A stretch of 64,000 bases of DNA from Falciphora oryzae. Taxonomy: Eukaryota; Ascomycota; Sordariomycetes; Magnaporthales; Magnaporthaceae. Positions 5,001-43,716 of this stretch are shown here, one piece after another (positions within the stretch are counted from its first letter, which is position 1; each line of letters opens with the position of its first letter). The translations under genes were made by a program, and so were the position numbers. The notes under the pieces were generated by a model. It ran no database searches, had not been told where the DNA came from, and saw only the letters and a program-made list of their open reading frames with translations. Location: NCBI GenBank assembly GCA_000733355.1, contig JNVV01000057.1, forward strand, positions 62,001 through 126,000, given 5' to 3'.

Positions 5001-5094
5001 AGGGCTTGGGGGTACCGATTAACAGGGCCTTTCCAAAGCTTAGGAGGAAAGATAGTAAAGCTTCCGTTAGGGGGCAGAGCGTAAAAAGATTATT

Positions 5095-20932: not shown

Positions 20933-20968
20933 GGGGCTGTTCTAGGCTATTGGTTTTTTGGTTTTTTG
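20933..20968 (+). repeat. Left terminal inverted repeat of the Harbinger element
   Basis: GGGGCTGTTCTAGG then GGTTTTTTGGTTTTTT after a short variable stretch. It pairs with 43681-43716 in reverse orientation. Confidence 0.8.
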
Positions 20969-21974
20969 GACCCCCTGCCGGTTTTTTGACCTGATTTAAG
21001 CTTAATTCTCGACGTGGAAACAACGTCCGGGGTCGCCCTGTGACCGTTCATATATATTTGGGCCTGATTTTCAGTGGATTCCCATCCAGTAGATACAGGG
21101 AACGTCTATCTATAAAAAGCAAAGGGCACAAACGCTCAAAATAAAAGCTATTCCCAAAAATAATAACGACCCATGCAAAGTCGTAATCCAGGGCCAAAGC
21201 AGGCCAGAATAGCCTCATGTTCTGGCGGATCCAGAGGGTCCCTGGGGCCGGTGGTAGGCTCGTTCGAAAGCCCAAAAGCCAGGGAATCTCGTAGTATATA
21301 AGGGGAGGCTCCTGGCAAGTCGGATTCAAGTACAGAACGAGCAACACAAAAACTAATATACTCTAATTACATTACCTATAACCCTTCTTTTTTACCTACC
21401 AACCCTACTTCTAATACCATGCCTCGTCAACTGTCCCTCCGTCTCCGGCGCCGGCGCCAGGAAAACGAAAATCGCGCCCTATCTTTGCCCCCCTCGTCTC
21501 CCGTAACCTCTGCCGGGGAAAAGGAGGGTCTTCCAGCCACCCAAATCACGTTGGGAACCCCGGCAGCCTCGCTGGAAGGCCAGGAAGCCGGCAATCTTAA
21601 CGATTTTTACGACCCCTTTGAGGCCCCGGAGGCCCCGGAGGTCCCGGAAGTCCCGAAGTCGTCCCCTCCGCCTTCCCCTATACCCTTTACGGCCCTTTCC
21701 TTTGCTACAGCCTCGCAAACGACCCAGGGCACCTACGTGGAAGGCTCCCAAACCTCCCAGGAGGGCGGCAAACGATCCGATTGGACCGCCGATCAGCTCT
21801 TGGCCTTCCTCGAAACCCTCGCGAAGGCCGGCCGGCAAGGGGAAATAAATCCGGCGATCTCTAGCTGGCTTAACAAATGCCTCAAAAAGGCTGCAAAGGT
21901 TTTAGCAGATCAATGGCCCTATATCCGATGGTTAAAAGGGTCAAAAACAAATACAACAGCCTTAAAGCGCAATA

Positions 21975-22269
21975 TGTAACAAGGGGTCAAAGACGGCTTG
22001 GAGAAAGAATCTCTAGATTGCAGATAATCTTTCTATGGGCTCAAGAGATGCTTGAGGAGGAAGGAATCTTTCGTGAAGGACATAGGAGATGGCAGGGTTT
22101 ATATAAACCCTTTGTGATCCGTGCGAAGTATCGAGTACATGATTTACACTGCCTTCCGACCTTCACCGCTTGGCCTTAGGGCCGTTGACCGCCTATGCGG
22201 GTTTTCGACCCTCCGTAAAGCCGACTCGTAATGCCAACTAGTTAAGTCCACGGGTTCTTCCGTATAACA
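21975..22269 (-). repeat. 3' LTR of chromovirus copy 4
   Basis: 295 bp, TGTAACA...ATAACA on the + strand. It is followed on the right by the reverse of the polypurine tract (CTATCCTCCTTTTCCT at 22270-22285). Confidence 0.93.
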
Positions 22270-22289
22270 CTATCCTCCTTTTCCTAAAG

Positions 22290-25200
22290 CGCGTTTCGAA
22301 ACCTTCCGAAGCCCGCTTAAAGGATGCGGCCGTACCTATGTCTTGTAGCACGCGGGGGTCTTTAGGCTTATCGGGGTTAAGCCGATAAAAAGCAATAACG
22401 TGCTACTTAAATTCGTCGGTATCAAAATGCTCCCAAAATTCCTACGTCTAATCCTTTTTGCGTAAGTAATCCTCCTACCGGACAAAATAACGAACCTTTC
22501 CTCCTATATTTATAAAGTTTATAACTTTTTTTACAACGAAATCTCTTACAACCGAAAGGGCCTTCTATAGTACCTGGTTAAGGTCAGGTTGTGCTTAAAT
22601 GCTAAAGCGGTAGGGTTTAATAAAGGATACGTGGAAAGCGTTATAAATTTTCCAAGCTTTAAGCAAAGCTAGCCGTACCGCCGTAGGAAAGATAACCTTA
22701 AAGATTTAGAAGGGCCCGAGCATTTTGGCATCGAGTTTTTTGGTAGGGCGACGGGTTTTTATGTGCCGGGCGTTTAGCATAACAAGCTGTCCTTTGGTAA
22801 GGACCGGCGAAAGGCTTCTCTTTTTGTCGGCCTAATGCTTTATCCGTTCCCGGGCTTTTTCGAAGTACCGTTTGGCTTTTTCGTGCACCTAGGTTATCTA
22901 GTGCCGGTAAAATTGGCTTATTGGATTGCGTACTCGTTTTGGGAAAGGGGGATTATTAGAAGCTGGGTAATACCCGTAGTTGGCGAAAAAGGGGGTAATG
23001 GAAGTATTTGCCGAAAATGTATTATTATAAGCAAATTCCGCCGTAGGTAACAGCTTAACCCAATCGGTTATTTCGTAGTTTACGAAGGATTTAAAGTAGG
23101 CTTTTAAGCTTTAGTTAAGCCTTTCGGTTTATCCATCCGTTTAGGGATGGAAGGCAGTGCTCATTTTTAGCTTTATACCTACCAGACGGAAGAAATCTTT
23201 CCACAAATGGCTTGTAAATCTGGAATCCCTATTAAAGATGATATCTAGGGGCACACCGTGCAATCGCTAGTATTTTTTGGCGAAAATGCGGATAAAATCA
23301 TCCGACTTTTTACCCTCGATTTTAAAAGGGACGAAATGCGCTATTTTGGTAAAAGGGTCTACCATTACCCAAATTAAATCGCATTTATCACTTAAAGGGA
23401 GGTCCGTAATGAAATCCATGGCCACCGTTTTCCAAGGCTGGTAATGCAGCTCCATAGGTTGTAAGGGTCTAAAGGGGGCATGCCTTAAGGCCTTATTGCG
23501 TTAGCACTCCAGGTATCCCCTTACGTATTCCCGGACTTTTGCCTTAATATTGGGCTACCAAAAGTGCCTAGTAATTAATTCGAAGGTTTTATCCATACCT
23601 ATATATCCAGCGACTTTTGTGTTATATTCGGACTTAAAAACTTCCTTTTGTAGGGCTTCCGTTAGCACCTACAATCTTTCCTTATAATAAAAAAAGCCAT
23701 CCTTAATTTCTTTACCCTTTTCGGGCTTCTAAAAGCGGCCTTAGTATTCGGAATCCGATATACCAGCTTGTTTAACTTTGTTAGTAAATTCCGTAGCCCA
23801 TTTTAAAACTGGAATACTGCAAAGCCGGCCTAGGGATAGGAGGAAAGAAGGTGCTCCTTGCGGCAAAACTTCTTCCATAAGGTTATCTCCTTATCCTTCC
23901 AAAGCCGAAATTCTTGCTGGGAAGTGTTTTTCTTGCAAAATCGTCGTAATCGGCTAATCCTCACTCCCCCCTTTTTTAAACTTGTGCTAGGGTAATTTCG
24001 ATAGCACATCGGCCTTTTCATTTTGCTTTTTTAGCCGGTAATTGATTATAAACTAATAACCAGCCAGCTATTGTGCCCATTTAGCTTGCCTTCGATTAAA
24101 GATTTTAGCCGTTAAGAAATATTCGAGGTTCCGGTAATTCGTATAAACCTTTATCTGGTGCTTTGCCCTTTCGAGGTAATGCCTCCACCTAGCGAAATAG
24201 TCGACGACCGCTAAAAGTTCCTTATCGTAAATTTTATAGTTAATTTCGGCGGGTGACATTTTGCGCGAATGGAAGGCAACGGGGTGCAGTTTGTTGGTTT
24301 CGGGGTCCCTTTGGGATAGCACCCTTCCAAGGGCAAAGTCCGAAGCGTTTACCTCGATTTGCGCCGGGAAAAACGGATCGAAATGCCGGAGTATCGGAAG
24401 CGAAACGAAAGCGACTTTAAAAGCCTCGAAGGCCTGGTCCATTTCGGAGGTCCATCGCCATTGGTTTTTTGGCAGGGCGTTAGCCGTCGTTATAGGCCTA
24501 ACGATTCCGGAAAACCCTTTGATAAACCTTTTATAAAAGTTAGCGAAGCCAATAAAGGATTGGGAGTCCTTAAGGCATTTGGGGGCTTCCCATTGCACAA
24601 TGGCGTCCATTTTATCCTTAAATATTGCGATGCCGTTAGGTCCTATTATATAACCAAGGAATTCGACTTCGTGCACCCCCCAAACGCATTTGCGAAGGGC
24701 TACGGCTAAATTATGCTTGGTAAAGCGGCGAAGCACTTCCTTTACCAAATTATCGTATTGTTCTTTAATCTCGGCGTATATCAAAAGGTCATTTAGATAT
24801 ACAAGGAGCCCGGTATCGATAAGGTTTATAAAAATATAGTTCATTATGCTTTGGAAGGTGGCGGGGGCGTTGATAAGGCCTATAGGCATAACCGTAAATT
24901 CGAAAACTCCGTATTTGCAACGAAAAACTATAAACTATTCGTGGCCTTTTTTTATTCGAATTAAGTTAAACCCGGTTTTAAGGTCGATTTTCGTTATCCA
25001 TTTGGCATTTCGAAATCGATCCTAAAGCTCCGTAATAAACGGGATAGGGTACCGAATCGGGATCGTTTTAGCGTTAACGTCCTTATAGTCGACCACTACC
25101 TTTAAAAAATTAAAGGGGTTTTTTTTATACGAACATAAGGGGCGAACTATTAGCAGTTTTGCATAGCCTAACTTTGCCGGTTCGCATATGCTTTCCCAAC

Positions 25201-28200
25201 CAAAGCTTTAAAACGTCCAGCTCCCTTTGGCTCATTTGGTATAGGGGTTTATAGGTTAATTAAGCTCCTTCTTTTAAGTGAATTTCGTAATCCTAGGGCT
25301 GATGATTGGGAAAGCGTGTAGCGGCCGCTTCCGTCATAATAGGAAGAAATTCCCTAAACTCCTTTAATACCGATTCGAGGCCGTTTAAATCTGCTTTGGC
25401 CACTTCTTTAGGGGAAGGAATACCATACCCGTACTTAATGGCGGCAATAGTCGCAGGCTCGACTATTTTTATATTTTCCCGAAAGCGTAAGCCTTTAGGT
25501 GGCCGTAAATCCGGCGGCTTTCGGGCCCGGGGCTTGTTGCACTTCCGGCATTTGTCCAAATCCATACGGATATCCCGAAGGTCGCGATCTAATAAACTTA
25601 ACGGTAGGTATTACCTTTGCCATGCGAAAAGTAGGATAACGTCGCAATCTGGATCCGTAAAACTAATTTCGAACGTTTTTATGGAATAGTGCGTTTTATG
25701 CCGGAGGGTAACGTCGACCACTAGTTGCTTTCCGGCCCTTAGTTCGACCGCCCCTAAAAAAGTAGTTATAATGCGGGGAATAGCTTTGTCGACCAAATGC
25801 CCTAGAAGCTACTTGGCTATTTTGTCCGAAATAACCTTCGTATCGCTGCCTCCGTTTAAAAAAACCCGAACAGGTATCTCCTTCGATCCTTTTGCCCGTA
25901 TATACATACGGAAAATCGGCCTTACGAGCTTTTTATCCGTTAGGGGCCTTCGGGCAGCAGCGACGGTCGATGGTTGTTAACAGTTATCGTCCGATTCCGA
26001 ATTTGACAGCTCGAAGATTCGGGATCCGGTAAAGGCGTTTCCTTCTAAGGCTTCCGAAACGAGGCCGGCGATTTTAGCCTTTTTAGCTTGTGGCTGTTCC
26101 TCCTGTTCGTCCGTTGCAGGGCGTTTAGAGATGGATTTAGCTCCGGCCGTTTTTGCAGGTGCAAAAGGAAATTCCTTGCCGTTAGTGTCCTTTTTGGCGT
26201 AGCATTCCAACGTATGGTGCCCTTCTCTTCCGCAGCGCTAGCAGTTGGCTTTGGCCAACTTTTGTGCGTTGATATCGCGTTGTTCGACCCTTTCGAATGC
26301 CAGTTTGGTCGTAGTTTAAACGTTACTTTTTTTGTCGGCTTTATCGTTAACCTTCTTTCCGGAACGGGAGCTTGAGGATGGATTTTGGCTTTTGTTTTTG
26401 GAGCTTTTGCTTTGGCGACGGCCCGCGTTCGAGCGTTCCGAAATTGAAACGGGCTCGTTTTTTCCCTTATCTTTCGGGGTTAGCCCAAGGTTTTGGAGCA
26501 TAACCTCGTAGATTTTGCCGGCCTCCTAGATTGCAGCAAGGAATTCTTCGTCCGTATTAAGGACTCTTTCGTAACGGGAATATACCAATTTGGTAATTTT
26601 TTTTGGAAGGGTGCGGGAAATGTGCTTTTTGAATATGACGCCGGACCATTGGATTATTTCGTTAAGGTTAAGGAGCTTAGTAAGGTATTGAACGGTATCT
26701 TTTTTGTATTTAAGCTCCCGCATTTTTTTAGCGTTGCGGTGGTGTTTGGTGGCGTTCCGGAAGCGTTTTTGTAGTGCCGCCGAATAGGCCCGCCAGTTGT
26801 TTTCGAGTTGCGCGCTTTGAAGGGACCGAAGGCGTTAATGGTGCTAAATTTGTGCGTTTTGCGTAAATAGGGACCCGACCCAGTTGATTTTAACTGTATC
26901 GTTAGGAAAGTTTTCGACGTAGGTTTTTATATAGGAGGTAACGCGAAGCTATTATGGCCTAAATTTAGCCAGGTCCTTGCCGTTGTAATTGGGTGGCTTG
27001 TTAAGCTGGACTGGGTTGATAACGGCCGTAGGGATCGGACCACGCGGGCGAGCAGTTCCTTGTTGGATGGCTTTGATGAGGTCCCGCAAATCGGGGTTTT
27101 TGGAGGCCCGTCCGTTATTTTCGGGGGCATCGTTTTCCGAGGAGGTGTTCGAAGGTTCCGAAGGTTCCGAAGGAATAGCAATATGCTCGGGAGGTTCGTT
27201 AGGTGGCTTTTGGGGAGGCCTTTAAAGAAGTTCTTCAAAGCTTCCGGAGTGTTTGGGACCTGCCGTTGCGGCTTTGTACTGTTATTGGGCAGCGGAGGCA
27301 GTAGCCCGAATTTGTTGCCGTCGGAGGTTATCGGATGATAGGGGGTCTTGAAGACCTTGGCGTGATGATGCCGACGTTTTAAGCGCCGATTGGGGTAGCG
27401 GTTTCTCCGTAAAAGGGACGGGTTCTTCCCTTTTTGGAGTGCTTTGACGTGAGCCCGGTGGAAGGGACGACCTTTGGAAGGCCGAAAGTACCGTAGCTGA
27501 TTTAGGCCGCCTTTTTTATGCCGCAAATCGCCGGCTTTCCCGTACGGCGTCCTTAACGAGCTGATGCGTTTGGGCTAATATGCGCCGTTCGGCATTAGTG
27601 AGGGCTTCGGGCGATACGTGCTTTTTAGTTAGGAGATCCTGGATCTGGGCATCCTTATTGACGGCCCAGTTAGTGACTCCTTTTTCGAAGGTGGAAAGTC
27701 GTGCTTGTAGGTCCTGCAAATGGTTTTGTTAGGCCCGAGTAACGTCCCGGAGTTAAATTAGGGCTTCCGAACGGATTTGTTGCTCTTTGGCCAAAGTGGC
27801 GACTGTGGCCCAAACTTGTTATGCAAATGCCTAGCTTTTTCCGATAATCCGTTGCCGGAATGCCTTTTGTTGGTTGGCGGAAGCGATTAGGCCTTTTTTA
27901 TATAAAGAAACGACGGTATGGTACGCGTGGGTGATGCGGTCGTAATGGGTCCTAATTTCGCGGATTTGTTCCCGATCGGCGAGGATTTCCTGGCTCATAC
28001 CTCGGGATAGGGCCGAAATTGCTTCGTGCGTATTGATGAATTCCCGCTGGATTTCGGTCATCCAGCCCGGGGGGTTTTAAAAGCGTCCTACGGATATAAA
28101 GGCTTGTTGTTCGAGGGCTATGTCGAAGGGGGGTGCCGAATATAGGATAAGTGCCTTTTAATCGTTGAGCATAGGTGTATTTTGACGTTCTTTCGGTGCA

Positions 28201-28590
28201 AACCGGGAGGGGCTTTCGGGGGCTTTTCCGGCCGCTTTTTTAAATTGGGCCGGCATAGTATCGGTAGGTATACCGGAATCGTTAGGTAAAGAAGGGGATT
28301 TTATAGCCGGCATGCTAAAGTCGTTTGGTAAGGAAGGAGATGTCGTTGCAGACGAGATAAGGGGGTCCGGTTCCTTGTATTCCTGGGCAGAGTAAAATCC
28401 CAAGGGTATAAGGGAGAATTTCCGGCCTTTTTTAGAGTCCCGTGGTTTTTTTAGGGCGATTGAGAGGGTAAAACGACCCTTTTGTATATTTTTTTCGCTT
28501 TTACCCGTTTGAGAACACCAGTGACAGTTAAAATGTTTGTGGTGTGGCCTTAGGGTTTTATTCGCTAAAGAAGGCAACAGTTGGAGCTTG
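22290..28590 (-). pseudogene. gag-pol of chromovirus copy 4, disrupted
   Basis: Read right to left. Gag (about 28577-25980) has the MTEIQREFINTHEAISALSR coiled-coil-like block at 28061 and a damaged zinc knuckle near 26250 (its first cysteine is now a stop). Protease region is near 25900-25615, RT and RNase H at 24889-24068, integrase near 23600-22650 with AMDFITDLPLS (23455-23267), and the chromodomain near 22560-22400. The RT active site is YLND, a different RIP hit from the YLDN of copies 2 and 3, so the copies were mutated at least partly independently. Gag through protease is one frame. A one-base indel between about 25290 and 24890 puts RT and integrase in another. Confidence 0.9.
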
Positions 28591-28676
28591 GGGGTGCCGA
28601 CTGACAGGGCTTTTCCAGAGCTTAGGAGGAAAGATAGTGAGGCTTCCGTTAGGGGGCAGAGCGTAGAAAGATTATT

Positions 28677-28971
28677 TGTAACAAGGGGTTAAAGACGGTT
28701 TGGAGAAAGAATTTTTAGATTGCAGATAATCTTTTTATGGGCTTAAGAGATGCTTGAGGAGGAAGGAATCTTTCGTGAAGGATATAGGAGATGGCAGGGT
28801 TTATATAGACCCTTTGTGATCCGTGCGAAGTATCGAGTACATGATTCACACTGCCTTCCGACCTTTACCGCTTGGCCTTAGGGCCGTTGACCGCTTATGC
28901 GGGTCTTCGACCTTCCGTGAGGCCGACTCGTGATGCCGACTAGTTAGGTCCACGGGTTCTTCCGTGTGATA
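28677..28971 (-). repeat. 5' LTR of chromovirus copy 4
   Basis: 295 bp in reverse orientation. The adjoining internal sequence (28661-28676) is the reverse complement of the primer-binding site AATAATCTTTCTACGC, unmutated. Confidence 0.93.
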
Positions 28972-29949
28972 TAATATAAGGACTGGCTGGACTTTGGAAA
29001 ACGGTTAGGGGTTACCGTTAACCCGGTTACGAGGCTATATTTCGCCAGCGATTAAGCCTAGGAGGCGTTCCTTTCGATCCGGCCTGCCGCCCGTTAAATG
29101 CGCAAAAGGCCTTTTTTCCGCCCGGACTTCCACGAGGCCGCATTTGCCGGCAATTAGGCAATAGGGGAACAAATCGCTACGGCCGCCCAACGCCTATACG
29201 ACGTCCGGCAAACCAGGGAAGGCCGCGGAAAACGGCCCTCTAGTAGGGCCGGGCACCTTACGGTAGCGGAAGCCCAACTCCACGTCGGAAATCGCCTTTT
29301 AGAAACTGCACAAACGTTAGCCCGGGCCGGATCCGGATTTAACTGGGGCTTAACCCCTTCGAGTACGAAGTCCTCCCCGGCCGGCCGGACGCCTTGTAGG
29401 CGTTGGTTAAAGCACGAGCCCTAGATACAAGCCGCAAAGGAGCTGCGAAAGTACCCCTAAGACAATTTATCAGGCGAAATCAAACGGAAATTAATCCGGA
29501 CCTTTAAAAAAGACGAAGGGATAGCTTACTAATGGTTAAACGACGTTAAAGACAGGGAAATAATAGTAAATTTGGTGCAAAGCGACGAGCTGGATTTGTA
29601 GTAGCGATTAAACGGTTCAAATAAAGGTATTCTCGTAATCGGGCGGCTTGTCTTAATGGAGTTATAAAAAAATATTATTGTTAGTTTTTCTTTTAAATAA
29701 CGTGGTTCATTAGTGAGTGACGCACATTAGCGAGTAACGCACCCAACCCCCAACCATTCGACAATCGACGCGCATACCAACCCAATAACGCCAGGAATCT
29801 ATTCAAACTACTCGGAACTGTATACATCAGATATCTTTACTTCTTCCTGACAGGTGCGCGCATTGTGTCCGGTTTTGCCGCAAATGCTACATCGCCGTCG
29901 AGTCGTCGTCGCCCTCCTTTTTTAACCCCCATAATCGCGCATTTTTTAC

Positions 29950-31846
29950 TATAACTATCCATCTAGCTCCTTCTGGTCTAAAACATTTCGTACCTCGTCG
30001 ATAGTAAGTGACCCTTTAAATCGGACACGTGTTTTTTTGGCCCTCCGGCGTTTGCTTAATGCTTCGTTCGCCTTTCGTAATTTGGAGCACTTTTCCTCCA
30101 AAAGGTTAACCCGATGTATAATTGCCCTAGCCCCTTTCGCAAACTGGTCCACAACCGCTAGCATAAATGTCGGAAAGCTGCTTTAATAATTGGAAATTCG
30201 AGTTTTAATATATTTAAATTGCGAAATTGCTTCCCTAACTGTTTTAAGCGTTTTAAAGGTCCAAGGTTCGGGGTCGTTTAAAGGCGTTTTCGGGGGAGTT
30301 GGAATTCGTAGCTTTATATCCAGCTTTTTTAAAACCGAATTTAGATTAAAAGGAGCAAAACCAGCCCCTCTAAAGCCTTTTTAAATATTTCCTTCGGTTA
30401 TAAAGTTAAAAAATGCCGTTTTAAACGCTAAAAAGAACTCGACCTTAGTTACGTAGCTAACGTGTAACCTTATTAGGTTTTCGATTTATCGACCGTACGC
30501 CTGCTTTATTAGGCCGAAACACCCAACATCAAGCGGCTAAAAAAAGTAAAACGAATGCGAAAATATGCAAAGCGTAATAATGTTGTGTTTTTAGCAATAA
30601 AGCTCGAAATCCGTCAAATGGTGGCTTTCGTAGCCGTCTAATACTAACAAACGATAGGACCCCGTAAAACGAACTGTAATGTGTTGTCACACGGAAGAAC
30701 CTGTGGACTCACCTAATCGGCCCCACAGAAGGTCCGGGAACCGGTATAGGTGCCCAACGGCCCCGAGGCCCAAAGGCCGAAAGCCGGAAGGGCAGTGTGA
30801 ATCATGTACTTAATACTTTGCACGGATCACAGGGTGGTTTATATAAACCCTGCTATTTCCTATGTCCTCCATGAAAGATTCCTTCTTCCTCAAGCATCTC
30901 TTGAGCCCATAGAAAGATTATCTGCAATATAGAGATCCTTCTCCAAGCCGTCTTTGACCCCTTGTTACAGATTCCTTCTTCCTCAAGCATCTCTTGAGCC
31001 CATAGAAAGATTATCTGCAATATAGAGATCCTTCTCCAAGCCGTCTTTAACCCCTTGTTACATGTGTTTATCGAAATACTGGATCCATTCCAAACCGAGT
31101 TCGTTCGTAATCCACCCGTTAGCGCTTGTTGCGATAACTTAATTACGTAAAAAGTCGGTTTCCGAATACTAATTGGCTAAATGGTATTGCCTTTTAACGA
31201 TAATAAAAGGAAAGACCGCTTAACCGCAACAGTTAACCTTTTAAATAACTGTAACCCATTCCCGGTTACCAAATTAAACCAGCTTTGCTTTACTACGGCC
31301 TTCCGATGTTATAATAACTATAACGGCGGCAATTATGCTCATAAAAAAGCCGGTTTCGTCGAAGTTATAAATGTCGTTATCCTGGATGCCATATTTGGCT
31401 ATAATGTTCTATATAAAATCGAACTACGCAAAAACGAGCTTGGGATTTTCGCATTTGGCCCTTTAATAGTCGTACTTTCGAATCTAACGCGTGCCGAGCT
31501 TTGCGCGGCGCTTAACGAACTTATCAACCCAGCACTTGCTAACAGTGCCCGCGTCGCGTTCGGCAAGCAATCGGTTGGCCATAGCTTCAACACCAAAAGG
31601 CCGGGGAGGAAATGCGCGAAAATCCAATTCGAATATGTATTTAACAAGCGCCTCCTTTTCGGATTCCGTTAATTTCCGTAATTTGGGCATGCAGTCGCGT
31701 CGAGGAGGTTGGCCAGCACGTCGGCGACGCAGCGTGGCTTTAAGGACGTTGTAGATTTTAGCGGCCGAACGCATGCTCAATTGCGCATTAGATTGCATTG
31801 CCCGTATGGCAAAAACAATTCTAGCTTCGTTGGATGTAGATGCCAT
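29950..31846 (-). pseudogene. Fot1/pogo transposase, disrupted
   Basis: Starts at 31846 with MASTSNEARIVFAIRAMQSN, the psq-type helix-turn-helix typical of fungal pogo transposases. A CENP-B-like segment with FPPRPFGVEAMANRLLAERD follows. The DDE part follows in other frames: FDETGF near 31345, and RLLVLDGYESH near 30640 on the far side of the inserted LTR. Removing the LTR and one TGTGT copy restores the frame across YFDKHITVRFTGSYRLLVLD. Frameshifts near 31490 and several stops kill the gene. The enzyme cuts and pastes the element at TA sites. Confidence 0.82.
30685..31062. repeat. Solo chromovirus-type LTR with an internal 93-bp duplication
   Basis: TGTCACACGG...CCCCTTGTTACA, flanked by perfect TGTGT duplications (30680-30684 and 31063-31067). 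The last 93 bases are doubled in tandem (30877-30969 and 30970-31062), the copies differing by about one transition. The single-unit length is 285 bp. The sequence diverges from the 295-bp LTR in its first third, so it is a related subfamily. Confidence 0.9.
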
Positions 31847-31946
31847 TTGTAGTTGTTAAGCAATTGAGGTTGGAAATGGGAGACGCGAGTCGCGATAGAA
31901 AACGCGTTATTCGCTAATATGCGTCACTTACTAATAAACCACGTTA

Positions 31947-32485: not shown

Positions 32486-32496
32486 ACGTGGTTCAC

Positions 32497-32547: not shown

Positions 32548-32908
32548 GAAAAATGCATATTAAACAGCGTTTTTTTACAATTAAATAATTCGCTCAATTT
32601 AACGCCAAATTTAACAAGAATTTATATATATTCATACTACCGTTATGTCTATATAAGACCTCGGTGCCTCTACTATGTAATATTTACATGTAAAAACCCT
32701 TGAACTCGTCCTCGGGTGCGTATCGCCCCCGCTCCGGAGCCTGGGAGTAAAAACTATATCTGCTCTTCGTATACGGTCCTACTGTGTTGAACAGTGGTAC
32801 CGTCTGCTTATCTTCATGCGACTGCTCGTAAGGGTTCCGTCGTGGAAGCGTCCTTGTAATCAGTAGAACAAAAGGAAAATACGTAAGGGAATAAAGGTAT
32901 GTTGCGCC

Positions 32909-33154
32909 GGGGCAGCGTCTCGGTGCCGGGTTTCGCCCTCGTAGCGAAACGGCTGTATTGGTACTCGTATTGTGGCGTCCTAGTGTAGCTTTTCCGCGTA
33001 AATTGGCCCGGTTCCGCTCCGGGTCCCAACCGGGGCAGCGCTTTAGTGTCGGGTTTCGCCCTCGTAGCGGAATGTTTGTATTGGTACTCGTATTATAGCG
33101 CCCTAATGTGGCTTTTTCGCGTAAATTGGCCCGGCTCTACTCCGGGTCCCAGCC
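32909..33154 (+). repeat. Two 123-bp tandem repeats
   Basis: Units at 32909-33031 and 33032-33154. They share GGGTTTCGCCCTCGTAGCG, TTGGTACTCGTATT and CGCGTAAATTGGCCCGG, and differ mainly by transitions. They are GC-richer than the surroundings. Confidence 0.8.
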
Positions 33155-33591
33155 GCGGGCGGGCCCTCCGGGTTTAGCGTTTTGCTTCGTGACTTTAGGT
33201 GATTCAGTTTTTAGTAGGTGCCCGCTTCCGGGGCCGTTGCTCCGCGTGCGGTTCGGGTCCGCCTTTATAGCTTGCATTTAATTTTTCTGTTGGTTGCTTC
33301 CCTTTTTTTGGATCGCGTTATTTAGGTAACTCTTTTTTATTGCTGCGTTATCGTACGTTATAGTTTCTGGTAGTAACTTCCCTTTGTTTCCTTCCGGATC
33401 CGGGTTTCTACCGGCCTTTTTTTTCCCAATTACAAAAGGCCCTCTTTCCTTCCTTCCTTTCTCCCTTTCGCTCTTTTTTTACCACCGTTTCCGGTCCTGC
33501 CCTTTTGCCCGCGCTTCCTTTTTTCCTGCCTGCATTTAAGTTCCTGCTCGCTCGCGCCTCGTTTCCCCTCCGTTTCCTATTTTTTTGCAGC

Positions 33592-34800
33592 ATAGCTCCC
33601 AAAAATAAAGCTTTTAAATCTCCCCGCGGTGGTGGTGGTGGCGGTCGCGGTGGCAATCCCGGCAACGGAGCCACAGGCGGTGGCCGCGCCGTTCCCGCCG
33701 CTGCAGCTAGTGGCAATAGTGGTAGTGGTAGTAGCGGTAGCAATCGTTTTCGCAATCGCCCTCCGTTTGCGGACGAAAACAACGGCAGCGGTTTAAACGA
33801 CGGCAGCTTAGGCGACGGCGTCCAGGACCCTCGTATTAAAACTGTAGGTGCGGCTTTGCTCCGTTCCTTTCCCTATTTTGTTATTAATTTCCTCTTTTCC
33901 TCCCAACCCTACCGCTTATACAATTAATCGGAGTATTTGCCGGCGGTCGAAGTCCCCGACAACTGCGTCTCTTACGACGATATGGTATATATTTGCCGCC
34001 CCGCTATCCTTCCTATTCCGCCTCTTTAATTTCCCAATCCCTCGTATAAAATATGCGTTAGCTATTTTTAACGTTTCGCTAACGGCATTAACGGTACCGG
34101 TACTATACGCTGGTGCTATTACAAAGCTTGTATGTAACGCTCCTTATCCTGCTTTTTTCCGCTCCGTTTCCGGTTTTACTAACATAATAATTCCAATTAC
34201 TAAAGGCTTTATTTGTGTGGGCTGCATTTAATCGCGTAGTGCTTGCGTTTAGGTTAATCGCTCCCTTTTAGTATCCGTTCGCGATTTCGTCGCTAACGTT
34301 TCGTTCCCGTCGCGGTAGCTTCCTACTAATTCTAAGGACCAGGTTGCCGCTATTTTTTGTACCTACTATCGCTATATGCAATCCCTGCCTAAAATTAGTG
34401 CGGACCGCGATATTGCGTTTACGGATGTCTATGCTATTGCTAAAATATATACCGCTTTTATTCCGGGCCGCTATTTATCCTATCCTAACATTTCTTTTTT
34501 TTCCAAGTTCGCTATACTGGTTTAAAGCATGCGATCGCCGGGTATTACCGTATTTCGAAGGATATCCTTAAACGGTCCGGTATTTTTTCCGGCGCCGGGT
34601 TTAACCGCTTGTTCCTTACCAATTTTAGGAATGCCTTCGCTATTGTGGCTGCTTTTAATGGTTCGGGTTTAGTCCGCTCCCCCTTCGGTAACATAATGCC
34701 CCCGGGCTAAGCTATATTGGGCTGGGCCGAAAGGATCGTTATTAAATAGAGCACGGAAAATCGCACTCGGATGGAAAAGCTGGCTTTTAAGCGGGCTAAA
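33592..34800 (+). pseudogene. Degenerate + strand ORF with Gly-rich start, family unknown
   Basis: After an ATA that may be a RIP-altered ATG, the + strand reads APKNKAFKSPRGGGGGGRGG, then a Gly/Ser/Asn-rich stretch and GDGVQDPRIKTVGAALLRSF. It then continues with many CAA/CAG-type stops to ERIVIK and TRMEKLAFKRAKIRVG just before the MITE at 34814. The start resembles the low-complexity head of a gag-like protein. The frame is opposite to the LINE genes. I cannot name the family, and the coding nature of the second half is uncertain. Confidence 0.35.
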
Positions 34801-34813
34801 ATACGGGTAGGTA

Positions 34814-35253
34814 ACGTGGTTCACAAGCGAGCCGCGCACACAAGCGAGTCGCGCACTTTAAAATCCTATATTAAACGGCGTTTTTTTTCAATTAAATAAC
34901 TCGCTCGATTTGGAGCTAAATTCCACCAAAATTAAAACAGTTATATTTAATTGTATAAAGATTATAATTTGAATTTTCCGCATTTTTATTATTACCCCTT
35001 TTAGGTTAGTTTGCAACACTGTGTATTATACTGTGTAAAATATGCAAAATATGCAAACTAACCTAAAAGGGTTAATAATAAAAATGCGGAAAATTCAAAT
35101 TATAATCTTTATAAAGTTAAATATAACTGTTTTAATTTTAGTAGAATTTAGCCTTAAATTGAGCGAGTTATTTAATCGAAAAAAAACGCTGTTTAATATG
35201 GGATTTTGAAGTGCGCGACTCGCTTGTGTGCGCGGCTCGCTTGTGAACCACGT
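34814..35253. mobile_element. Intact 440-bp fold-back MITE
   Basis: An almost complete palindrome with arms of roughly 200 bp. Ends ACGTGGTTCACAAGCGAGCC and its reverse are flanked by TA (34812-34813 and 35254-35255). The inner arms share ACCCCTTTTAGGTTAGTTTG / CAAACTAACCTAAAAGGG. It is the same family as the split MITE at 32486-41766, but its subterminal repeats are variants (ACAAGCGAGTCGCGCAC). Confidence 0.93.
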
Positions 35254-35600
35254 TATTTATTTTTTCGCTTTTACTATCCGCTTCCAATCCGCTAACTCCA
35301 CGGTATTTTTCAAATTTCCCTTCGGCAAAACGTTACCGAAAACGTTTTCGACAAAATACTATCGGAATGCCGGAAGGACGTTTTTAATAAAATAAAACGG
35401 GATATAAACAATAATAGCCTCCGTCGTCGTTTTCCTGCCAACCCCTTTTAATAATTTCCTCGGTTTTCCTTTTATAACGACTCGGTTACGTAGCGCCGGT
35501 GTTTGCGTGGTTTTTTTTTCCTTTTCGCTTTTCGGGTATGGTGCTTTCGTTTGCTTTTTTATAGTTTTTTTTGGTTCGGTTCGTTTTCGGCTCGGTAGCG

Positions 35601-38600
35601 TTAATTTTCCTTTTCTCTCCTTATACGTTTTTTCTTTGCCTTTTTAACCGCCCTAAAATTTAATAATCTTCTTATGCGAAACATTATGCGTATTACTTTT
35701 TTAAACGGTATGCCCCCTATTTCTTACAGCTTAAAATACGCTTTCCGGCTATTTGTTTGCGCTAGCCCGGTACCTTCCCGCTGTTTATCCTATCGGGCGC
35801 ATTGGGTTAATACGTGCCACGTTATTTCCCTTTATCCGCTGCCACACTCGCACAATAGCGTCGCCGCGTCGGGTACGCCCTTACTAAATAGGAACGAATT
35901 TAACCCTAATTTTTCCGTTTTAACTTAAATTGCTACCAAATTGTGTGCTTTTAGCATCTTTTCGTGGTATTCGACCATCTTTTCCGTAAATAGGGGGTTG
36001 TCCGCTAGGTACGCGGTCTTATACCGGTTCGCTTTCTTCGCTATTGCCGTTATATTAGCTATTTTCAACTTTTATTCCATTGTTACGTTAAAGTTCCAGC
36101 GCTTTACGTGCTTATGTTTGGATTTCCAATCTTTTCCGTGGGGGGCAAGTACTCGTTTCGGTTTTGGCGCTATTTCAAACCGGTTCTATCGTATTACCCA
36201 CTTTTTTTTCGCTTATCCGCTTTAAGAGTGGGGCCTTTTTTTTCGTTCTTTATAGCCGAATTTTTAAAAACGGTCCGCTATTTTCGCTATTATTTCGTTA
36301 ATGCGCTACGTTATCCCGGTTTTTTCTTATTTATTTTCCGTATTTATAACCCTTTCGTTTAAATATAAGTTTAAAAGCGGCACGTAGGTTTTTATTTCAA
36401 AGTATACCAGCGAGGTTGCTTTATAAACTCCAGCCACCACTTTAAAATATGCTTTTTATTTTTTCGCCATTTCTTTAGCTGCGCCCCGGGGCCGACCTCG
36501 GGGTTCCGTTAATAAATGGTAAGCTGTCGCTTTATAAACTAATGCATTGCGGCACACGACCGCGTACAGCTACCTCGCGCGTACGAAGCTGCTTCCCCAC
36601 GTTACCGCCGCAAGTTTTATTATTGCAAATTACTATCTTTTTTATTTGCCCTTTGCTTATTTGGTGTAGGCGTTAAAATTTAGCTTATGGTTTAGCCAAA
36701 CTCTTAAAAATCTCGCCGATAGCGTTGGTTGCACCTGTGTATTTCCGGTGCGGACCTGGGTCCGGTTTAAGGTTTTAATAAAATGGAGCAGCTCGGTTTT
36801 GGCCGCGTTAAACGTTATTCCTGTCTTTTTTGCCCATATCTGGCACGTATCCCAAACCTGTTTTAACAGCCGGGCCGTTTCCGCTATAATTCCCCCTATT
36901 GCTATAAGGTTGGTGTCGTTAGCGAAACCGATTACCGTTATCCCTGGTATTTTTTCCAATTTGTTGTAAAGCAACGCAATGTATAGGATAAATAGTATAA
37001 ATGAAAGTGGTAAGCTTTATAGTACTTTTGCTATTATTTATATAAACGTAAACGTATTTCCATCAAACCGGAGCCGGGCCGTCCTACCTATTAGCCAGCT
37101 TTTAATCCACTTAATTGTTTTTAGCGGAAATTTTTGTTTTCGTAAAGTATTGAAAAGTTTAATGTGGTTAACGTTATCGAATGCTTTTAATAGGTCGAAC
37201 TACAACAGCGAAACTGTAACGCCGTAATTCCACGCCGTTATTACGGTATTTGTCACTTGTCTAATAGCAAACTCGGTATTGCGTTTCCTTTTATTGCCCA
37301 TTTGCCTTTCCGGTAACAGTCCTCTTTTTTCCGCTTCGGTTGCGATCCGTATTCCTACGATCGCTTTTATAACTTTAGATATAAACAAAAAGAATACGAT
37401 CGGTCGCTACCCTTTTATTGTTTTTCTATTTTCCGTATTTTTCCCCGGCTTAAGGAGCATTACCGTTAGTGCGTTTCGGAAGCGTTTCAGGAAGTATTCG
37501 AATTCGAAGCTAGCGTTAGCTATTTTGGATATAGCTTCCTAGCATGGTTCCCCGCACGCTTTTAATAGTCCGTTCGGTAGGTTATCCGCTCCCGGAGCTT
37601 TTTAATTCCGGGTTCTTTTCAAAACCGCTAATATTTCATTTCCTTTAGGGTCCATTCGGTAATTAATTGGAAATGGGTTAATAAAAGTGTAATTTTCGAA
37701 CGTGGTATCCCCGACGTTTGTTAGGTCCGTTTCCGGGTTAAGGTAGAATTTGGCTGCTAGAACTGTAGCCTTATTAGCGTGGGAGTTCGCTAGCCTTTGG
37801 TTTCCTTCTTTAAACCGGTTCAGGTCCGGTAACCTGGTTAGGTCCCGTTTTTTATAGCTCCGTAATCTCGCCCATCGTTCGATGTTCCAAAAAACAAACT
37901 TTAAATCCTGTTTTTTTAACGCTTCCCTAATAAACTCCCTCCAGTATGCGTTAGAAGCTTTCCTTTTTTCCCTAATAAAAGCTTTATCAGCTGCTTTCAA
38001 TTCCTCGTAGCTTTTTTGTATTTTTAACCGTATATATGCGCGTCGGCACCGCTTCGTTTCTTTAGCTAATTTCGTAAGCGTTAAATTCTAATACGGTATT
38101 AGCTTAAAACTTGTTGTAATTTTTCGTTTCGCTGCTAGCTCGTTAGCGATTTGGGTTAGTTGGTCTATTAATGTATCCACCTGGTTATTTATATCGTTTA
38201 GCGTTTCTATATCCTCGATTTCGATATATTATTTAGCCAGTTACAACGCTTTTTTTTTGTCGTTTCTAAGGTCGGTATTAACCTCTTTCCACACCCATCC
38301 TTCTGCCTTTTTTTTACGAAGCGGCTCCGCTCCGCAATCGATCGAAATCATTTAAAAGTAATGGCCCGACCCCCTTATCTCGTCGTCCCTGCCCTCGTAT
38401 CTAACAGCTAAAGTATCAGATACCCACGCGTAATTGATAGTGCTTTTTCGTTCGCCGAACCTTTCTTTTATTATTTCCCCGTAAAACGTTGTTAGTTCGA
38501 GCCGCTACCGGTGCGCTAGCGCGAATAATAGCTCGAACCTGGCGTCTTCCCGATTGTGCATATCCCATATTGGGTGGTACATGTTAAAATCCCCTACTAA

Positions 38601-39600
38601 TACGGCGTGGTTCCGAAGCGGTGTTATTTCGATTTCGGTTAAGGGGGTATGCCATTCTCCTAATACCCGGGGGTTTAGCGAATATATTAAGTAAATGTCG
38701 ATATTCCCTATTGGGGTTTATAATATAATTGCTACCTGTTAAAAGAACTAATGTATTTAGCTTAGGTTGAGTGCATAGGCCCAACCTACCATGTACTACT
38801 TTTATTAGATTATCTACCCTGTACTGTTGTGGAGTTGTGCACAGGAGTAGCGGGCAGGGCTTATAGCGTACCCGGGGGTGGCTTACAGCATTTATAGCGC
38901 TTACTGAAAGCTTGAAGGTGGCCTGTAGCCCCTGTAGGATGCCTAAGCACCCAAGTCAGCCGTTGTGGGTCGCACTGACTCGCCTACCCTGCACATCTAC
39001 CCTATACAGAATTGGTCAGGAGTCAATTTGCATAAGTCAGAATTGGAGGCTCAACGCGGAGATGGGTTTGGTGGTCGTGGGTCGATTTTTTGGAAACCCT
39101 ATACAAAATAATTTTTCGGAAAATCGTTTGCGGCACCGGAAGCCCCTACGGCGGAGAACCCGCGGGATCAATGTCGGTAGGTATATGAGGGAAGCGATTG
39201 TTGGCGCCCCTCACCTGCAATACAAGCCTGTTCCACCCACTAAGCTTAAGGCCCCGACAGCGCTATTTATAGCGCCTGTTAGGGCCCAATCCAACTAACC
39301 GAAACCCTGCTAGCCACTGTGACTGCGCTGCAAATCCCCGATTTGACCTCCCAATATCAATACTACCCAATCGTATCCGCTCCGGCTTCTCCACGTTGCC
39401 GGGTTTAATCGTTAGTGGACATATAGTACTGCGTTCGATCTTGTGTCTGCTTAGTAATATACCAGCTCGTAATTGCATCCGGCTGGTCTTTTCGGGTCTC
39501 CGTGCTGGTCCAGCTCCGGTTTTTATATAACTATTATATCGTATTCCTTTTTACTAAAAAGCGGTATATCTCCTTTTCCGTTTCCTTTTCCCATATTTTA
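35601..39600 (-). pseudogene. LINE ORF2 (Tad1-type endonuclease/reverse transcriptase), disrupted
   Basis: Endonuclease pieces are KEYDIIVI near 39560 and GYDWVAIIL...TPIGNIDIYLIYSLNP (interrupted by the insert at 38737-39362), then GDFNMYHPIWDMHNRE near 38580. Reverse transcriptase follows: LPERQMGNKRKRNTEFAIRQ (about 37310), a LLKAFDNVNH block (about 37180) and the active site FANDTNLI (about 36910), where FADD is expected. A C-terminal CCHC-type finger has CECGSG...WHVLTQC (about 35815-35860), typical of Tad1-like elements. The frame ends at a TAA at 35601-35603. Stops and Asp-to-Asn changes are RIP-like. Confidence 0.85.
38737..39362. repeat. 626-bp insertion in the LINE endonuclease, probable solo LTR
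   Basis: Starts TGTTAAAAG, ends ATCAATA, with 5-bp duplications CTACC (38732-38736 and 39363-39367). Removing it restores GYDWVAIIL in the LINE frame. The final ATA would be ACA before a C-to-T change, giving the TGT...ACA ends of an LTR. Its composition is less AT-rich than the LINE around it, so it is younger or escaped RIP. No coding content. Confidence 0.75.
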
Positions 39601-39699
39601 ATATAGGATTGTTATTACCATAAGGATTTTAATAGGCGTTTTTATACGTCGAACGGAATTGTGCTATCTCTAATCGGTAGCGGCTCGGATAAAGGTAAC

Positions 39700-41160
39700 G
39701 GCTTTAACGGGGCCGGTGTTCGTCCTTATCCTCCGGCTGCTTCTGCTTGGATTTGTTCGTCTGCCGTAATTGGGGGTTAAGCTAGCCGGGAGCTCGCTTT
39801 AAAGGCGTGGTTTGTTGTAAGTGGCGGTCGTGTGGCGGTCCGGCCCCTGGGTGGCTGCGAATTCTTACGGGGTTTGCCGGGTTTTCGGCGGCCGGGGGAC
39901 CGGATTAAGGAGTCGTTATTTGTGTCCGAATTTTATTTGCGCCTTTTGCTAAGGCTCGGTAGTCCTCCGATACCGGGGGGTATACGCGTTTAAAAGATGG
40001 GGAAGGTGGTGGTGGCTTTTGTTTGTTTAGGGGCTAATCTTTCCAGCATAAATCTCCTTAGCCGGTTCTGGTATGCTTTTTTCGCTTTCCCGATCGCCCG
40101 TTGCGCTATTTCGCAGCCCCGGTTAAACGCCGGGTGCGGTTCGCCGCAGTTTGCGCATTTGGGTGTAGCTTTGTTATGTTAGGGGTGGGCGTCGCATTAA
40201 CTTTTTTTTTTTTAATATTGCGGTTTTCCGTAATGCGGGCAGCGGCCCGGTTTTTTGCAAAACTTTTATCGGTGCCCCCATTCGTAACAGTTATAATACT
40301 AGATGGCTTTAGCGTTTGGTATAAACGGCTCGCATTTGAATAGTTCCGCTTATATTACCAGTCCTTGCTTGTAAGCTTGGTCCGCGGCGGTTGCGGACCC
40401 GATTCGTGCTAATATTATAGCGTATCCGTAAAGGGTGCGGGCTAGCCATACGTGCACTAATTTAACTTCCGCGTTTCGGTTTTTAGCGTTTAGGTTACGA
40501 ATAAGTTGGTTTAGGTCCTTCGGTAGTGTTGTTTATTTTACTCCTTTAATTATTACGTCGTATGTCCGTTCCCGGATCGTTACCTGGTTTCCAAACACCT
40601 TTTTTACCCATTCGTCCCTTTTCCTATATTCGTTTGCGTTTGCGTAAAAGCATACTACCACGTTTCCGCTTTAAAGCCGCTTCGTTACCCGTACCGCCGT
40701 ACCGAATTGGTTATTTAATACCCGCTAGGTATCGATTTGCGATCGGTTTTTAATTGCTTTCGGGGCTTTTTTTACGGCTACGATTATTTCGCGTTCGATT
40801 TTTAACGGTATGAATCGCGGGGGGGGATGCGTCGTATTCGGGTATTGTTGTCGCGTTCGGTTCGGCGCATTTCCGTCCGGTATTAGGACCGGTAGGTCCG
40901 TGGCGAAGGCAAAAGCGTAGGACTTTTTGGTGTTAATTAGTGCATTTTTAACCTTTATAAGTATTTCTGCTTTCAATTCCTGTAGTGTCGCTTTGGTTAC
41001 CGGTCCGTTTTCGGTGGCGTCGCGCTTGCGAGCCGTTTCCGCGTCGACCTTTAGCTTCGTCAATTCCGATACCAATTGCAGAACTTCCAGCAACTTTCCA
41101 CTAATTACAAAGGGTTTTAGTTTGTTAATGATTTCGTCTTCTTTTTCCTCCTAACGGCCG
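39700..41160 (-). pseudogene. LINE ORF1 (gag-like) with zinc knuckles, disrupted
   Basis: Minus-strand frame from about 41154 includes VTKATLQELKAEILIKVKNA (coiled-coil-like). Further on it contains YYNCYEWGHR...KFC (first knuckle, its first Cys now Tyr, near 40290) and CANCGEPHPAFNRGC (second knuckle, near 40112-40160). ORF1 proteins of Tad1-like LINEs coat the RNA. Many stops. Confidence 0.7.
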
Positions 41161-41768
41161 CGCGCCGGTCTTTTGTCGGTGTCGGCATTCCCTCGCGCGT
41201 CCGGAGGCGCGTTGGGGGGATCCACCGTCGAGGCGTGTCGACTGGCCGCGAGCCCGGAATCGACTTCTATCGATTCTAGGCCCGCGCCGTCGGCGCGCGC
41301 CCGATGCGGCATCGATCCTGGGTCAAGTCGGGTGCGAGGAGTTCGATTCCGGTGTCAAAATTGAATTATCTCGGAGGGCTGTCCGGCTGCGCGATTTCAA
41401 GCTCGCAACGTTTTTGTCCACGTTATATAATTATTTAACAAGAATTTAAACAGTTATATTTAGCTATATAGTGAAGTTAAATTAATTTTTTCAAATTTTT
41501 ATTTTTACTTTTTTAGGGTTAGTTTTACAAAATTGTAAAAAATTCACAGTATTTTACATAGTGTTTAAAACTAACCCTAAAAAGGTAATAATAAAAATCG
41601 GAAAAAATGAATTTAAATTTATTACATAGTTGAATATAACTGTTTAAATTTTTGTTAAATTTGGCGTTAAATTGGGCGAATTATTTAATTGTAAAAAAGC
41701 GCTGTTTAATATGCATTTTTCAGGTGTGTCGCTCGCTTGTGTGTGTCGCTCGCTTGTGAACCACGTTA

Positions 41769-42194
41769 ACCTAATTAACAAATCGTAACTTTTTTCCGAT
41801 TGCCTTCGTCGAAGTAAATCGAACGCAAGTTACGGGGTCTCCTTACGAGCCCTATAAACCTGGTAATCGACCTATAACCTATCGGTTATTAATACCCGGT
41901 ATTAACCCCAAAACGCTTACGTTATGCCCATTTTTTGCCCTCGCTTTACTGCCTCCCTTTCAATTTAAACCCTTTAAAATGCATTTTCTCCCTCAATTTT
42001 AGCTTGTCCTAAACCAGGATTAGATGCTAAATGTTATGGCACGTAGCCTTGGTAGGGTTCGGTGCCAGGCTCGGCCACCTGTCGCACGGGCGCCTGGCAG
42101 ATCCGTGCGACAAGTGGAGCTCGGCTCGATTGCCCTAAGGCAATCGATCCGAACAGGTGCAACGCACAAACTCTTCCTTTTTTGTTCCTTAACT
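41769..42194. other. Harbinger internal spacer with two hairpins
   Basis: Between the MITE and the end of the transposase gene. Perfect inverted repeats TGTCGCACGG/CCGTGCGACA lie at 42080-42089 and 42103-42112. TCGATTGCC-CTAA-GGCAATCGA lies at 42126-42147. This stretch is more GC-rich than its surroundings. Confidence 0.7.
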
Positions 42195-43322
42195 TTAAAT
42201 AGCCAAATCAACCTGAGGGTTTGTTGCAGCTCGGCCTCTTCGCCCTCGTTGGTGCCGTGACACTAAAAATACTTTGGCTTCCTTTTTTAAAATAAAATTA
42301 TGCAAACCCGTAACGGCCAACACAATATCGACTTGTAAACGGATACGGTAATCGGGCGGCGTGCCCCTAATAATTTTCTAACGGCCTTTAAAATCACTAA
42401 AGGCCCTTTTAACAACAACGCGCATTTTCGCATAATGCAAGTTAAAAAGCTCGGCAGGGGTTTCCGGCCGGGCAAGGCTTTATTTTTGGAAGTAATACCT
42501 CGTCGCGATAAAAGGCGTTATTACCCCGGTGCCCTGGAAAAAGCCGGCATCCCCAAAGTAAAAATAACTCCGGGGGACTCGAAATCCGGCTTGTTAGGCC
42601 TCCTTAAGCAATTTGGAGTCGTACATCGAGCCTTCAGCGCCTGCCATAACGAAAACGAACCGCCCGCCGTAATTTACGGCCGCCAAAACGTTTTATGCAA
42701 TAGGCCCCTTCCGACTCCTCCACGCAACTCCCGCATCTGCGCTAACTTTAGCGTTGATCAAGGTCCCGTCGACGGCTCCCAGGCAGCCAGCGAAGGCCTC
42801 CCGGACCTCCTGACGCCTGCAATCAGGCCAGGAGACGTTAAAAACCTCCGGCAACGTTACAAACGCGACGTGGAAGGCCAGCATGGCTTGCAATACCTCG
42901 TGGAAATACCGGTGCGTTATCAAGGGACTGCGGCCGAAAAGGTGGGCCACGACTCTAAGGGAGACTCCCTGCCCACAGGTGTACAGGAAAAAGGCTACTT
43001 TTTCGCCTAACGAAACGCCTCTCGACCCCGTTAGCCCTGTATTCCTGTTCAGCCAGTCGCAAAGGGCCTGGAAAGTGCTTTGGTCGACTCGGAAAAGCTC
43101 CTTAAAGGCCGGGGCGGCCTCGGGTTTTTGCCAGTACCGGAAAAGGTTGTTACCGGAAAAGATCGTCGTATACACGGTCCGAAGGCCTCCGCCTAAGCCG
43201 TAGATAGATCCGGTAATGCAGGTGGCCGTGATGGCCCGCATATAAAGAAGGAAGATCTGACGGACTTTGCGCCGCGACAGGGCCTGGGAGGTAACGAAAG
43301 AGGTATCCATTGGATAGAGCAA
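42195..43322 (-). pseudogene. PIF/Harbinger DDE transposase, disrupted
   Basis: A single 376-codon frame from ATG (43322) to TAA (42195-42197) with four internal stops, each explained by CAA-to-TAA or TGG-to-TAG. Landmarks: FHEVLQAMLAFH, then GCLGAVDGTLI (first Asp), MAGAEGSMYDSKLL (second Asp), YFGDAGF, and NLHYAKMRVVVKRAFSDFKG where the third catalytic residue should be Glu (ERAF). It reads Lys, another G-to-A change. The protein would cut and insert the element as a complex with the Myb-like partner. It converges with the Myb-like ORF. Confidence 0.87.
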
Positions 43323-43680
43323 AAAAAGGCGAGTCGAACGGTATATTTGGTGTACTCAACGGGCAAAGATTGCGGTCAAAATGAACGAGTTAACTTGGTG
43401 CACCCTACTCCCTTCACTTGATCCGGATCCCCTCGATCTTCTATACTGGGAGGCCGGCCGGCCCTGTCCCTCTTTGACCCTCCCAGACCCTCCCAGACCC
43501 TCCCTGATCAAGGGTCACACGTGGCTTACAGGGCCTCTATCTACGCGACTCGTTGGCCTGGTCAAAAGGGTACTTCTGGCGGGCCTTGAGCTATATTTAT
43601 TAGGCTTTTTACAAGGGCCAGGGAGCCCCTGGCCCGGATCCGCAAACCGGTTTTCAAGCGGTTTTCGAAAATAGTATGGA

Positions 43681-43716
43681 AAAACCAAAAAACCCGATTA
43701 CCCTAGAACAGCCCCT
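43681..43716 (-). repeat. Right terminal inverted repeat of the Harbinger element
   Basis: Reverse complement reads GGGGCTGTTCTAGG, then GGGTTTTTTGGTTTTT. Subterminally (43615-43635) there is a near-perfect palindrome, GGGCCAGGG-AG-CCCCTGGCCC, perhaps a protein-binding site. Confidence 0.8.

What the first reader, a model, noticed from the sequence alone, without database searches (positions are those of the whole stretch)
20933..43716. A 22.8-kb transposon matryoshka inside one PIF/Harbinger element
Inverted ends GGGGCTGTTCTAGG with TTG on both outer sides enclose a Myb/SANT-like ORF and a convergent DDE transposase 13 kb away. Removing three first-order insertions leaves about 4.25 kb, a standard Harbinger size. 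Each insertion has its own target duplication: CAATA/TAATA, TA, TA, then TGTGT, ATTTAACAAGAATTTA, TA and CTACC inside those. This gives a relative order of activity for gypsy, Fot1, MITE, LINE and solo LTRs in one locus.
Basis: partly seen in the sequence, partly recalled or inferred. Interest (0 to 1): 0.75.

Follow-up and report, generated by a model that had tools for sequence, protein, structure and literature searches.

The report
Nested transposons inside one Harbinger-type element
One 4-kb cut-and-paste transposon in a fungal-type genome has been blown up to 22.8 kb by eight later transposon insertions stacked up to three deep; an uninterrupted sister copy in the same genome confirms it, and such nesting is ordinary, though well resolved here.

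Summary
Confirmed, with corrections. 20933-43715 is one PIF/Harbinger-type (PHIS) element with inverted GGGGCTGTTCTAGG ends and TTG on both sides. All seven listed target duplications are present. A fourth first-order insertion (231 bp, CTAAA/CTAAA) was missed: the host is 4,015 bp, not 4.25 kb, with eight insertions in all. Nesting does not order the four first-order insertions among themselves.

New: 248 of 269 differences from the sister are C>T/G>A in the window, RIP-like, rare at the ends (2%) and dense in the centre (22% of C/G sites); four of eight copies examined show such a rise. TA numbers rose in the host core, and two of three TA insertions here sit at TAs that are TG in some or all sister copies; a wider check shows no preference. 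By its duplication it is PHIS with a loose 3-bp site, not strictly TWA. Ordinary kind; modest interest.

The parts
20933..43715 (+). PHIS (PIF/Harbinger-type) host element, 22,783 bp with insertions, 4,015 bp of its own
   Evidence: TIR and TTG; five collinear pieces to C20:554015-558028
20930..20932 (.). outer target duplication TTG, left copy
43716..43718 (.). outer target duplication TTG, right copy
20933..20946 (+). left inverted terminal repeat GGGGCTGTTCTAGG
43702..43715 (-). right inverted terminal repeat
21302..21979 (+). remaining 5' part of the Myb/SANT-like ORF, cut by insertion I1
   Evidence: ORF; no Pfam hit by itself; the sister's whole ORF (413 aa) hits PF12776 at 6.6e-6
28977..29532 (+). 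stretch homologous to the rest of the sister's Myb/SANT ORF
   Evidence: position inferred from the alignment and the ORF limits
42693..43355 (-). open frame at the start of the convergent transposase gene
   Evidence: no Pfam hit by itself; homologous C20 frame L009:2376-2921
42297..42773 (-). DDE_Tnp_4 domain of the window copy, 56.2 bits, with 4 stops inside
   Evidence: G000:C57:104297-104773, converted to window coordinates
21975..28971 (-). I1: LTR retrotransposon of Ty3/gypsy type, LTRs 21975-22269 and 28677-28971, TSD CAATA/TAATA
   Evidence: RVT_1, RT_RNaseH and RT_RNaseH_2; boundaries; 12 other full-length collinear matches to its interior
29700..31944 (-). I2: Fot1-like Tc1/mariner-type element, TSD TA
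   Evidence: HTH_Tnp_Tc5 and HTH_psq; TIR 27/30, TA; paralogs
30685..31062 (.). solo LTR inside I2, with a 93-bp tandem duplication, TSD TGTGT
   Evidence: uninterrupted in L051
32486..41766 (.). I3: MITE with the Fot1-type terminal repeat, TSD TA, interrupted by a LINE
   Evidence: TIR 30/30; uninterrupted in C20
32625..41432 (-). LINE inside I3, TSD ATTTAACAAGAATTTA at 32609-32624 and 41433-41448
   Evidence: paralog L053 carries RVT_1 and Exo_endo_phos_2
34814..35253 (.). 440-bp MITE inside the LINE, TSD TA; the target is TG in the LINE paralogs read
38737..39362 (.). 626-bp solo LTR inside the LINE, TSD CTACC
   Evidence: uninterrupted in L053
42032..42262 (.).

Best explanation
A two-gene PHIS element (Myb/SANT protein plus DDE transposase) inserted with a 3-bp duplication, then died. 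Its core gained many C>T/G>A changes of the repeat-induced point mutation (RIP) type, while its ends were nearly spared. Eight other elements inserted into it and into one another, each with its own duplication: a gypsy-type LTR element, a Fot1-like element (later hit by a solo LTR), a MITE (later hit by a LINE, itself hit by a MITE and a solo LTR), and a 231-bp element. Shown: boundaries, duplications, sister copies, mutation pattern. Inferred: that RIP, rather than another cytosine-directed process, made the changes, and that the solo LTRs arose by LTR-LTR recombination.
For: Collinear uninterrupted sister with both genes. Duplications with uninterrupted paralogs for seven of eight insertions. 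3-bp matching flanks in 11 of 12 family copies whose two ends were both located (read). 248 of 269 substitutions are C>T/G>A in the window copy. Strong TCA/TCT context. Two loci with DNA_methylase matches in the genome.
Against: No empty site for the outer TTG. One of 12 family copies has unmatched flanks. The rise of changes towards the centre is seen in four of eight copies examined and not in the gypsy-type element. RIP activity itself was not tested, and the methylase hits were not assigned to RID or DIM-2.
Confidence: 0.94

Rival explanations
1. The Myb-like ORF and the DDE gene belong to two unrelated elements that happen to lie between similar ends.
For: In the window the last Myb-homologous stretch and the DDE domain lie about 13 kb apart.
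Against: The 4,014-bp C20 copy has both between the same ends. A 3,948-bp copy on C35 also has both ends and a DDE_Tnp_4 match without stops.
Confidence: 0.01
2. The nested structure is real but the C>T excess is ordinary decay or deamination of methylated cytosines, not RIP.
For: The context is TC[A/T], not CpA alone.
Against: Only 5 transversions and 16 reverse transitions against 248 directed transitions. CpG, the usual methyl-deamination context (recalled), is the least mutated (0.046). The load falls to zero in the last bins at the right end.
Confidence: 0.12
3. The clean ends reflect selection: only copies with intact ends could still be moved by transposase from elsewhere.
For: Ends are what transposase needs (recalled). 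The gypsy-type element, which does not move by its ends in this way, shows no dome.
Against: The slope runs over 1-1.5 kb, far beyond the terminal repeats. The window copy's changes need not predate its insertion.
Confidence: 0.2

Closest known systems
PIF/Harbinger group of the PHIS superfamily (PMC4482050: find passages and sections 5 and 8 read)
   Same: DDE_Tnp_4 transposase, Myb/SANT second ORF, short TIR starting with G, about 4.1 kb mean length, 3-bp duplication
   Different: The duplication is TTG here and TWA in only 4 of 11 copies with matching flanks
NuwaI / NuwaII groups of PHIS (same paper, same parts)
   Same: Two ORFs; TIR starting GG and 13-46 bp (NuwaII); 3-bp duplication
   Different: CWG found in 1 of 11 copies; C|TNA|G is not met by the window's TTG
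Transposase GGTG_05145 and Myb protein GGTG_13703 of Gaeumannomyces tritici
   Same: 71% and 55% identical relatives
   Different: Not examined in their genomic context
RIP of Magnaporthe grisea as described in RIPCAL (PMC2621366, passages read)
   Same: CpT changes accompany CpA changes
   Different: Here TpC is also preferred at the 5' side; organism not identified

Membership tests
PHIS superfamily / PIF-Harbinger in the wide sense | DDE_Tnp_4-type transposase | tested here: met
   Window copy 56.2 bits with 4 stops; C115 sister E 1.5e-23
PHIS superfamily / PIF-Harbinger in the wide sense | second ORF with Myb/SANT domain | tested here: met
   C20 sister PF12776 E 6.6e-6, over cut-off; the broken window ORF alone had no hit
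PHIS superfamily / PIF-Harbinger in the wide sense | short TIR beginning A or G, 3-bp duplication | tested here: met
   14-bp identical TIR; 11 of 12 copies with both ends located have matching 3-bp flanks
PIF/Harbinger group, narrow sense | duplication 5'-TWA-3' | tested here: not met
   TTG in the window; TWA in 4 of 11 copies; rule from PMC4482050 section 5
NuwaII group | target C|TNA|G | tested here: not met
   TTG in the window; rule
PHIS groups | place of the transposase in a tree of PHIS groups | not tested
Fot1-like Tc1/mariner (I2) | TA duplication and Tc5/Psq DNA-binding domains | tested here: met
   TA/TA also in 31 of 31 MITE copies and 10 of 10 Fot1-like copies fetched. DDE domain of I2 not tested
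Ty3/gypsy LTR retrotransposon (I1) | two LTRs, 5-bp duplication, RT with RNase H | tested here: met
   domain order against copia not tested, so Ty3/gypsy rests on the RT_RNaseH families (recalled)
RIP | C>T/G>A in repeated DNA, both strands, context bias | tested here: met
RIP | occurs premeiotically and depends on RID or DIM-2 | not testable with these tools
   Only two DNA_methylase loci seen

The most novel reading that the evidence does not exclude
The genome's own anti-transposon mutation feeds the nesting. RIP turns TG and CA into TA, multiplying landing sites for TA-inserting Tc1/mariner elements inside dead transposons, so that RIP-hit elements become growing sinks. Against C20, TA counts are 53 against 29 and 27 against 12 in two host core pieces, and two of three TA insertions in the window lie at TAs that are TG in some or all sister copies. 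The evidence shows supply, not preference.
Probability: 0.35. Interest if true: 0.5.

Novelty: new member of a known kind. Interest (0 to 1): 0.3.

Why it matters
It is a cleanly solved locus: eight insertions, seven of them checked against uninterrupted sister copies, so it can calibrate nested-repeat annotation. It also makes a simple question testable: does RIP, by making TA sites, steer later transposons into already dead ones and so spare genes? The dome-shaped mutation profile gives a natural measure of how RIP treats the edges of dispersed repeats.

Tried and rejected
Two different families joined by chance: rejected by the C20 sister. Paralogous empty site for the outer TTG: none.

RIP-like load as a clock for I1-I4: rejected as unreliable. 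Per C/G site against a paralog, the load is about 11% in the host (247/2210), 13% in I1, 18% in the LINE and 21% in I2 (my sums of the bins, leaving out I2's LTR bin). It is 1-3% in I4 (four paralogs) and 5% in the LTR of I2, 5% in the MITE of the LINE and 5% in the solo LTR of the LINE (17/329). The short, older I3 MITE shows more (5-12 of 44-49 on the left part, 13-16 of 82-86 on the right), but against paralogs only 76-85% identical. Length, age and choice of paralog are confounded.

Preference for RIP-made TA: 44 TA junctions tried (31 MITE, 10 Fot1-like, 3 in the window). MITE loci were left out as possible hosts and hits under 75% identity dropped. 29 had no usable paralog. Of 15 informative, 8 show TA in all paralogs, 2 only TG or CA, 4 are mixed, 1 shows TC. 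This is no excess over the share of RIP-made TAs among all TAs in the LINE and host pieces, 0.21-0.52 by piece and paralog. F_L077 and M_L123 may lie in MITE-like hosts and are weak. Against the supply idea: the LINE has no more TAs than paralog L052 (498 against 504), though more than L053 and L054.

Edge effect: a circular-shift test of the dome in the window copy alone is modest (73 of 2,209 shifts reach it). A rise inward is seen in four of eight copies whose own changes were looked at (window, C4, C20 against C115, C18). It is absent in C115 and in two C35 copies (L021, L026) and weak in C53 (L025), the last three being more diverged. I2 looks dome-like, I1 does not, and the LINE's ends were not covered.

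TSD pairs: ends with 3 mismatches in L012, L014, L018 and L058 that had no partner, and copies with one end in view (L008/L015, L002/L011, L018, L022, L057), were left out of the count of 12. Two of the 12 are short copies (about 230 bp) whose ends differ at 3 of 14 bases (L007, L024).

No solved structure matched the transposase at E 0.01. Paper searches for an edge effect or RIP-made TA targets showed no paper on these points in the titles and abstract starts listed; only passages of PMC4858203, PMC12543289 and PMC2621366 were read. The last mentions stronger RIP in the centre of non-tandem S. nodorum rDNA-type repeats and, for another repeat, slightly more towards the ends.

Full report
Observation. 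The inverted 14-mer and the TTG on both sides are present as stated. The window is contig C57:62001-126000 of a 50.2-Mb genome in 123 contigs. The two runs of N in the window (15742-15781 and 62774-63027) lie outside the structure.

Sister copy. The 14-mer occurs at 13 places in the genome, its backward control at 1. Two of the places bound a 4,014-bp element at C20:554015-558028 with CTA on both sides. It matches the window in five pieces, in order and on one strand: 20933-21975, 28973-29703, 31945-32487, 41767-42031 and 42263-43715, at 95, 90, 89, 86 and 95% identity. It has a 413-aa ORF with a Myb/SANT domain (PF12776) and, convergent to it, two DDE_Tnp_4 pieces; its DDE domain has two stops. 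A further sister on C115 has the whole DDE domain in one frame (E 1.5e-23). The two genes therefore belong to one family.

Insertions. Inside I2 lies a solo LTR (30685-31062, TGTGT). Inside I3 lies a LINE (32625-41432, 16-bp duplication). Inside the LINE lie a 440-bp MITE (34814-35253, TA) and a 626-bp solo LTR (38737-39362, CTACC). The interior of I1 is matched over its full length by 12 other places, so no large insertion lies in it (where 25 of 295 candidates were scored). After subtraction the host has 4,015 bp. Domain support: RT and RNase H in I1, Tc5 and Psq DNA-binding domains in I2, RVT_1 and Exo_endo_phos_2 in a LINE paralog.

Mutation pattern. Across the five host pieces (which overlap by a few bases at the duplications) the window differs from C20 by 269 substitutions: 248 are C>T or G>A in the window, 16 the reverse, 5 transversions. 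Per C/G site of C20 the rate is 0.02 within 250 bp of an end, 0.024 at 250-500, 0.067 at 500-1000, 0.141 at 1000-1500 and 0.223 beyond. A rise inward is also seen in the C4 copy (only its outer 1 kb read), in C20's own changes against C115, and in the C18 copy; C115's own changes are flat, the two C35 copies are flat and the C53 copy rises weakly. Pooled over host, gypsy-type, LINE and Fot1-like comparisons, TCA and TCT are mutated at 0.55 and 0.52, GCG at 0.007, and CpG overall at 0.046. This is RIP-like. RIPCAL's text (PMC2621366, passages) notes CpT with CpA changes in Magnaporthe grisea. The closest named relatives of both proteins are from Gaeumannomyces tritici. The genome has two loci matching DNA_methylase, not further assigned.

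Order. Nesting fixes two chains only. The CTAAA duplication of I4 carries a G>A change (CTGAA in C20 and C115) in both copies, so that change most simply preceded I4. The I1 duplication is CAATA/TAATA, with CAATA in C20, so one copy changed C>T afterwards. The two LTRs of I1 differ by 10 and 8 such changes in 289 aligned bases.

RIP-made targets. In three core pieces the window has 55, 53 and 27 TA dinucleotides against 30, 29 and 12 in C20; in the LINE 595 against 446 in L053 but 498 against 504 in L052. The MITE in the LINE sits at a TA that is TG in every LINE paralog read (four loci, two of which overlap, so three places). I3 sits at a TA that is TG in C115 and one C35 copy but TA in C20 and C18. 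Among 44 junctions, 15 had an informative paralog and showed no excess of RIP-made TA. So the claim is supply, not preference.

Family. Of 12 copies with both ends located, 11 have matching 3-bp flanks: TTG, CTA, TAA, CTG, TAA, CCA, TTC, TTA, CTA, TCG, TAA; one (C42, L007:743-1514) has TAA against CTA (paired by eye). By PMC4482050 (sections 5 and 8), PIF/Harbinger in the narrow sense has TWA. This family is looser, so I file it under PHIS and leave the group open.

Verdict. Nested transposons with RIP are a well-known kind of structure in filamentous fungi (established knowledge, recalled; several papers listed treat transposons and RIP, seen there as listing and start of abstract only). Interest is modest.

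Noticed in passing
G000:C4:707138-767647 (L023, L065, L066, L010): A second and larger nest: the same element spans 60.5 kb between TAA duplications, with a 49.6-kb insertion bounded by LTR-like ends and a CTCCT duplication, holding among other things a LINE copy at C4:748318-756027.
   Followed up: partly
G000:C53:248895-260237 (L025, L056): Another copy of the element, 11.3 kb between CTG duplications, so probably also interrupted.
   Followed up: no
G000:C58:146947-147634; C57:16913-18122; C12:610954-612779: MITEs of the I3 family inserted into or abutting one another; on C58 a full copy lies between two 130-base end pieces.
   Followed up: no
window 30876-31061: The solo LTR in I2 carries a near-perfect 93-bp tandem duplication; a related LTR on C17 matches at 98%.
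   Followed up: no
window 14956-15037: A short remnant 84% like the right end of the same PHIS element.
   Followed up: no
window 1-5094: A second copy of the I1 gypsy-type interior (C57:60687-67094, 88%) runs into the left end of the window.
   Followed up: no
window 43716-64000: G+C is 0.49 left of the element (1-20932) and 0.63 right of it; the element sits at a composition border.
   Followed up: no
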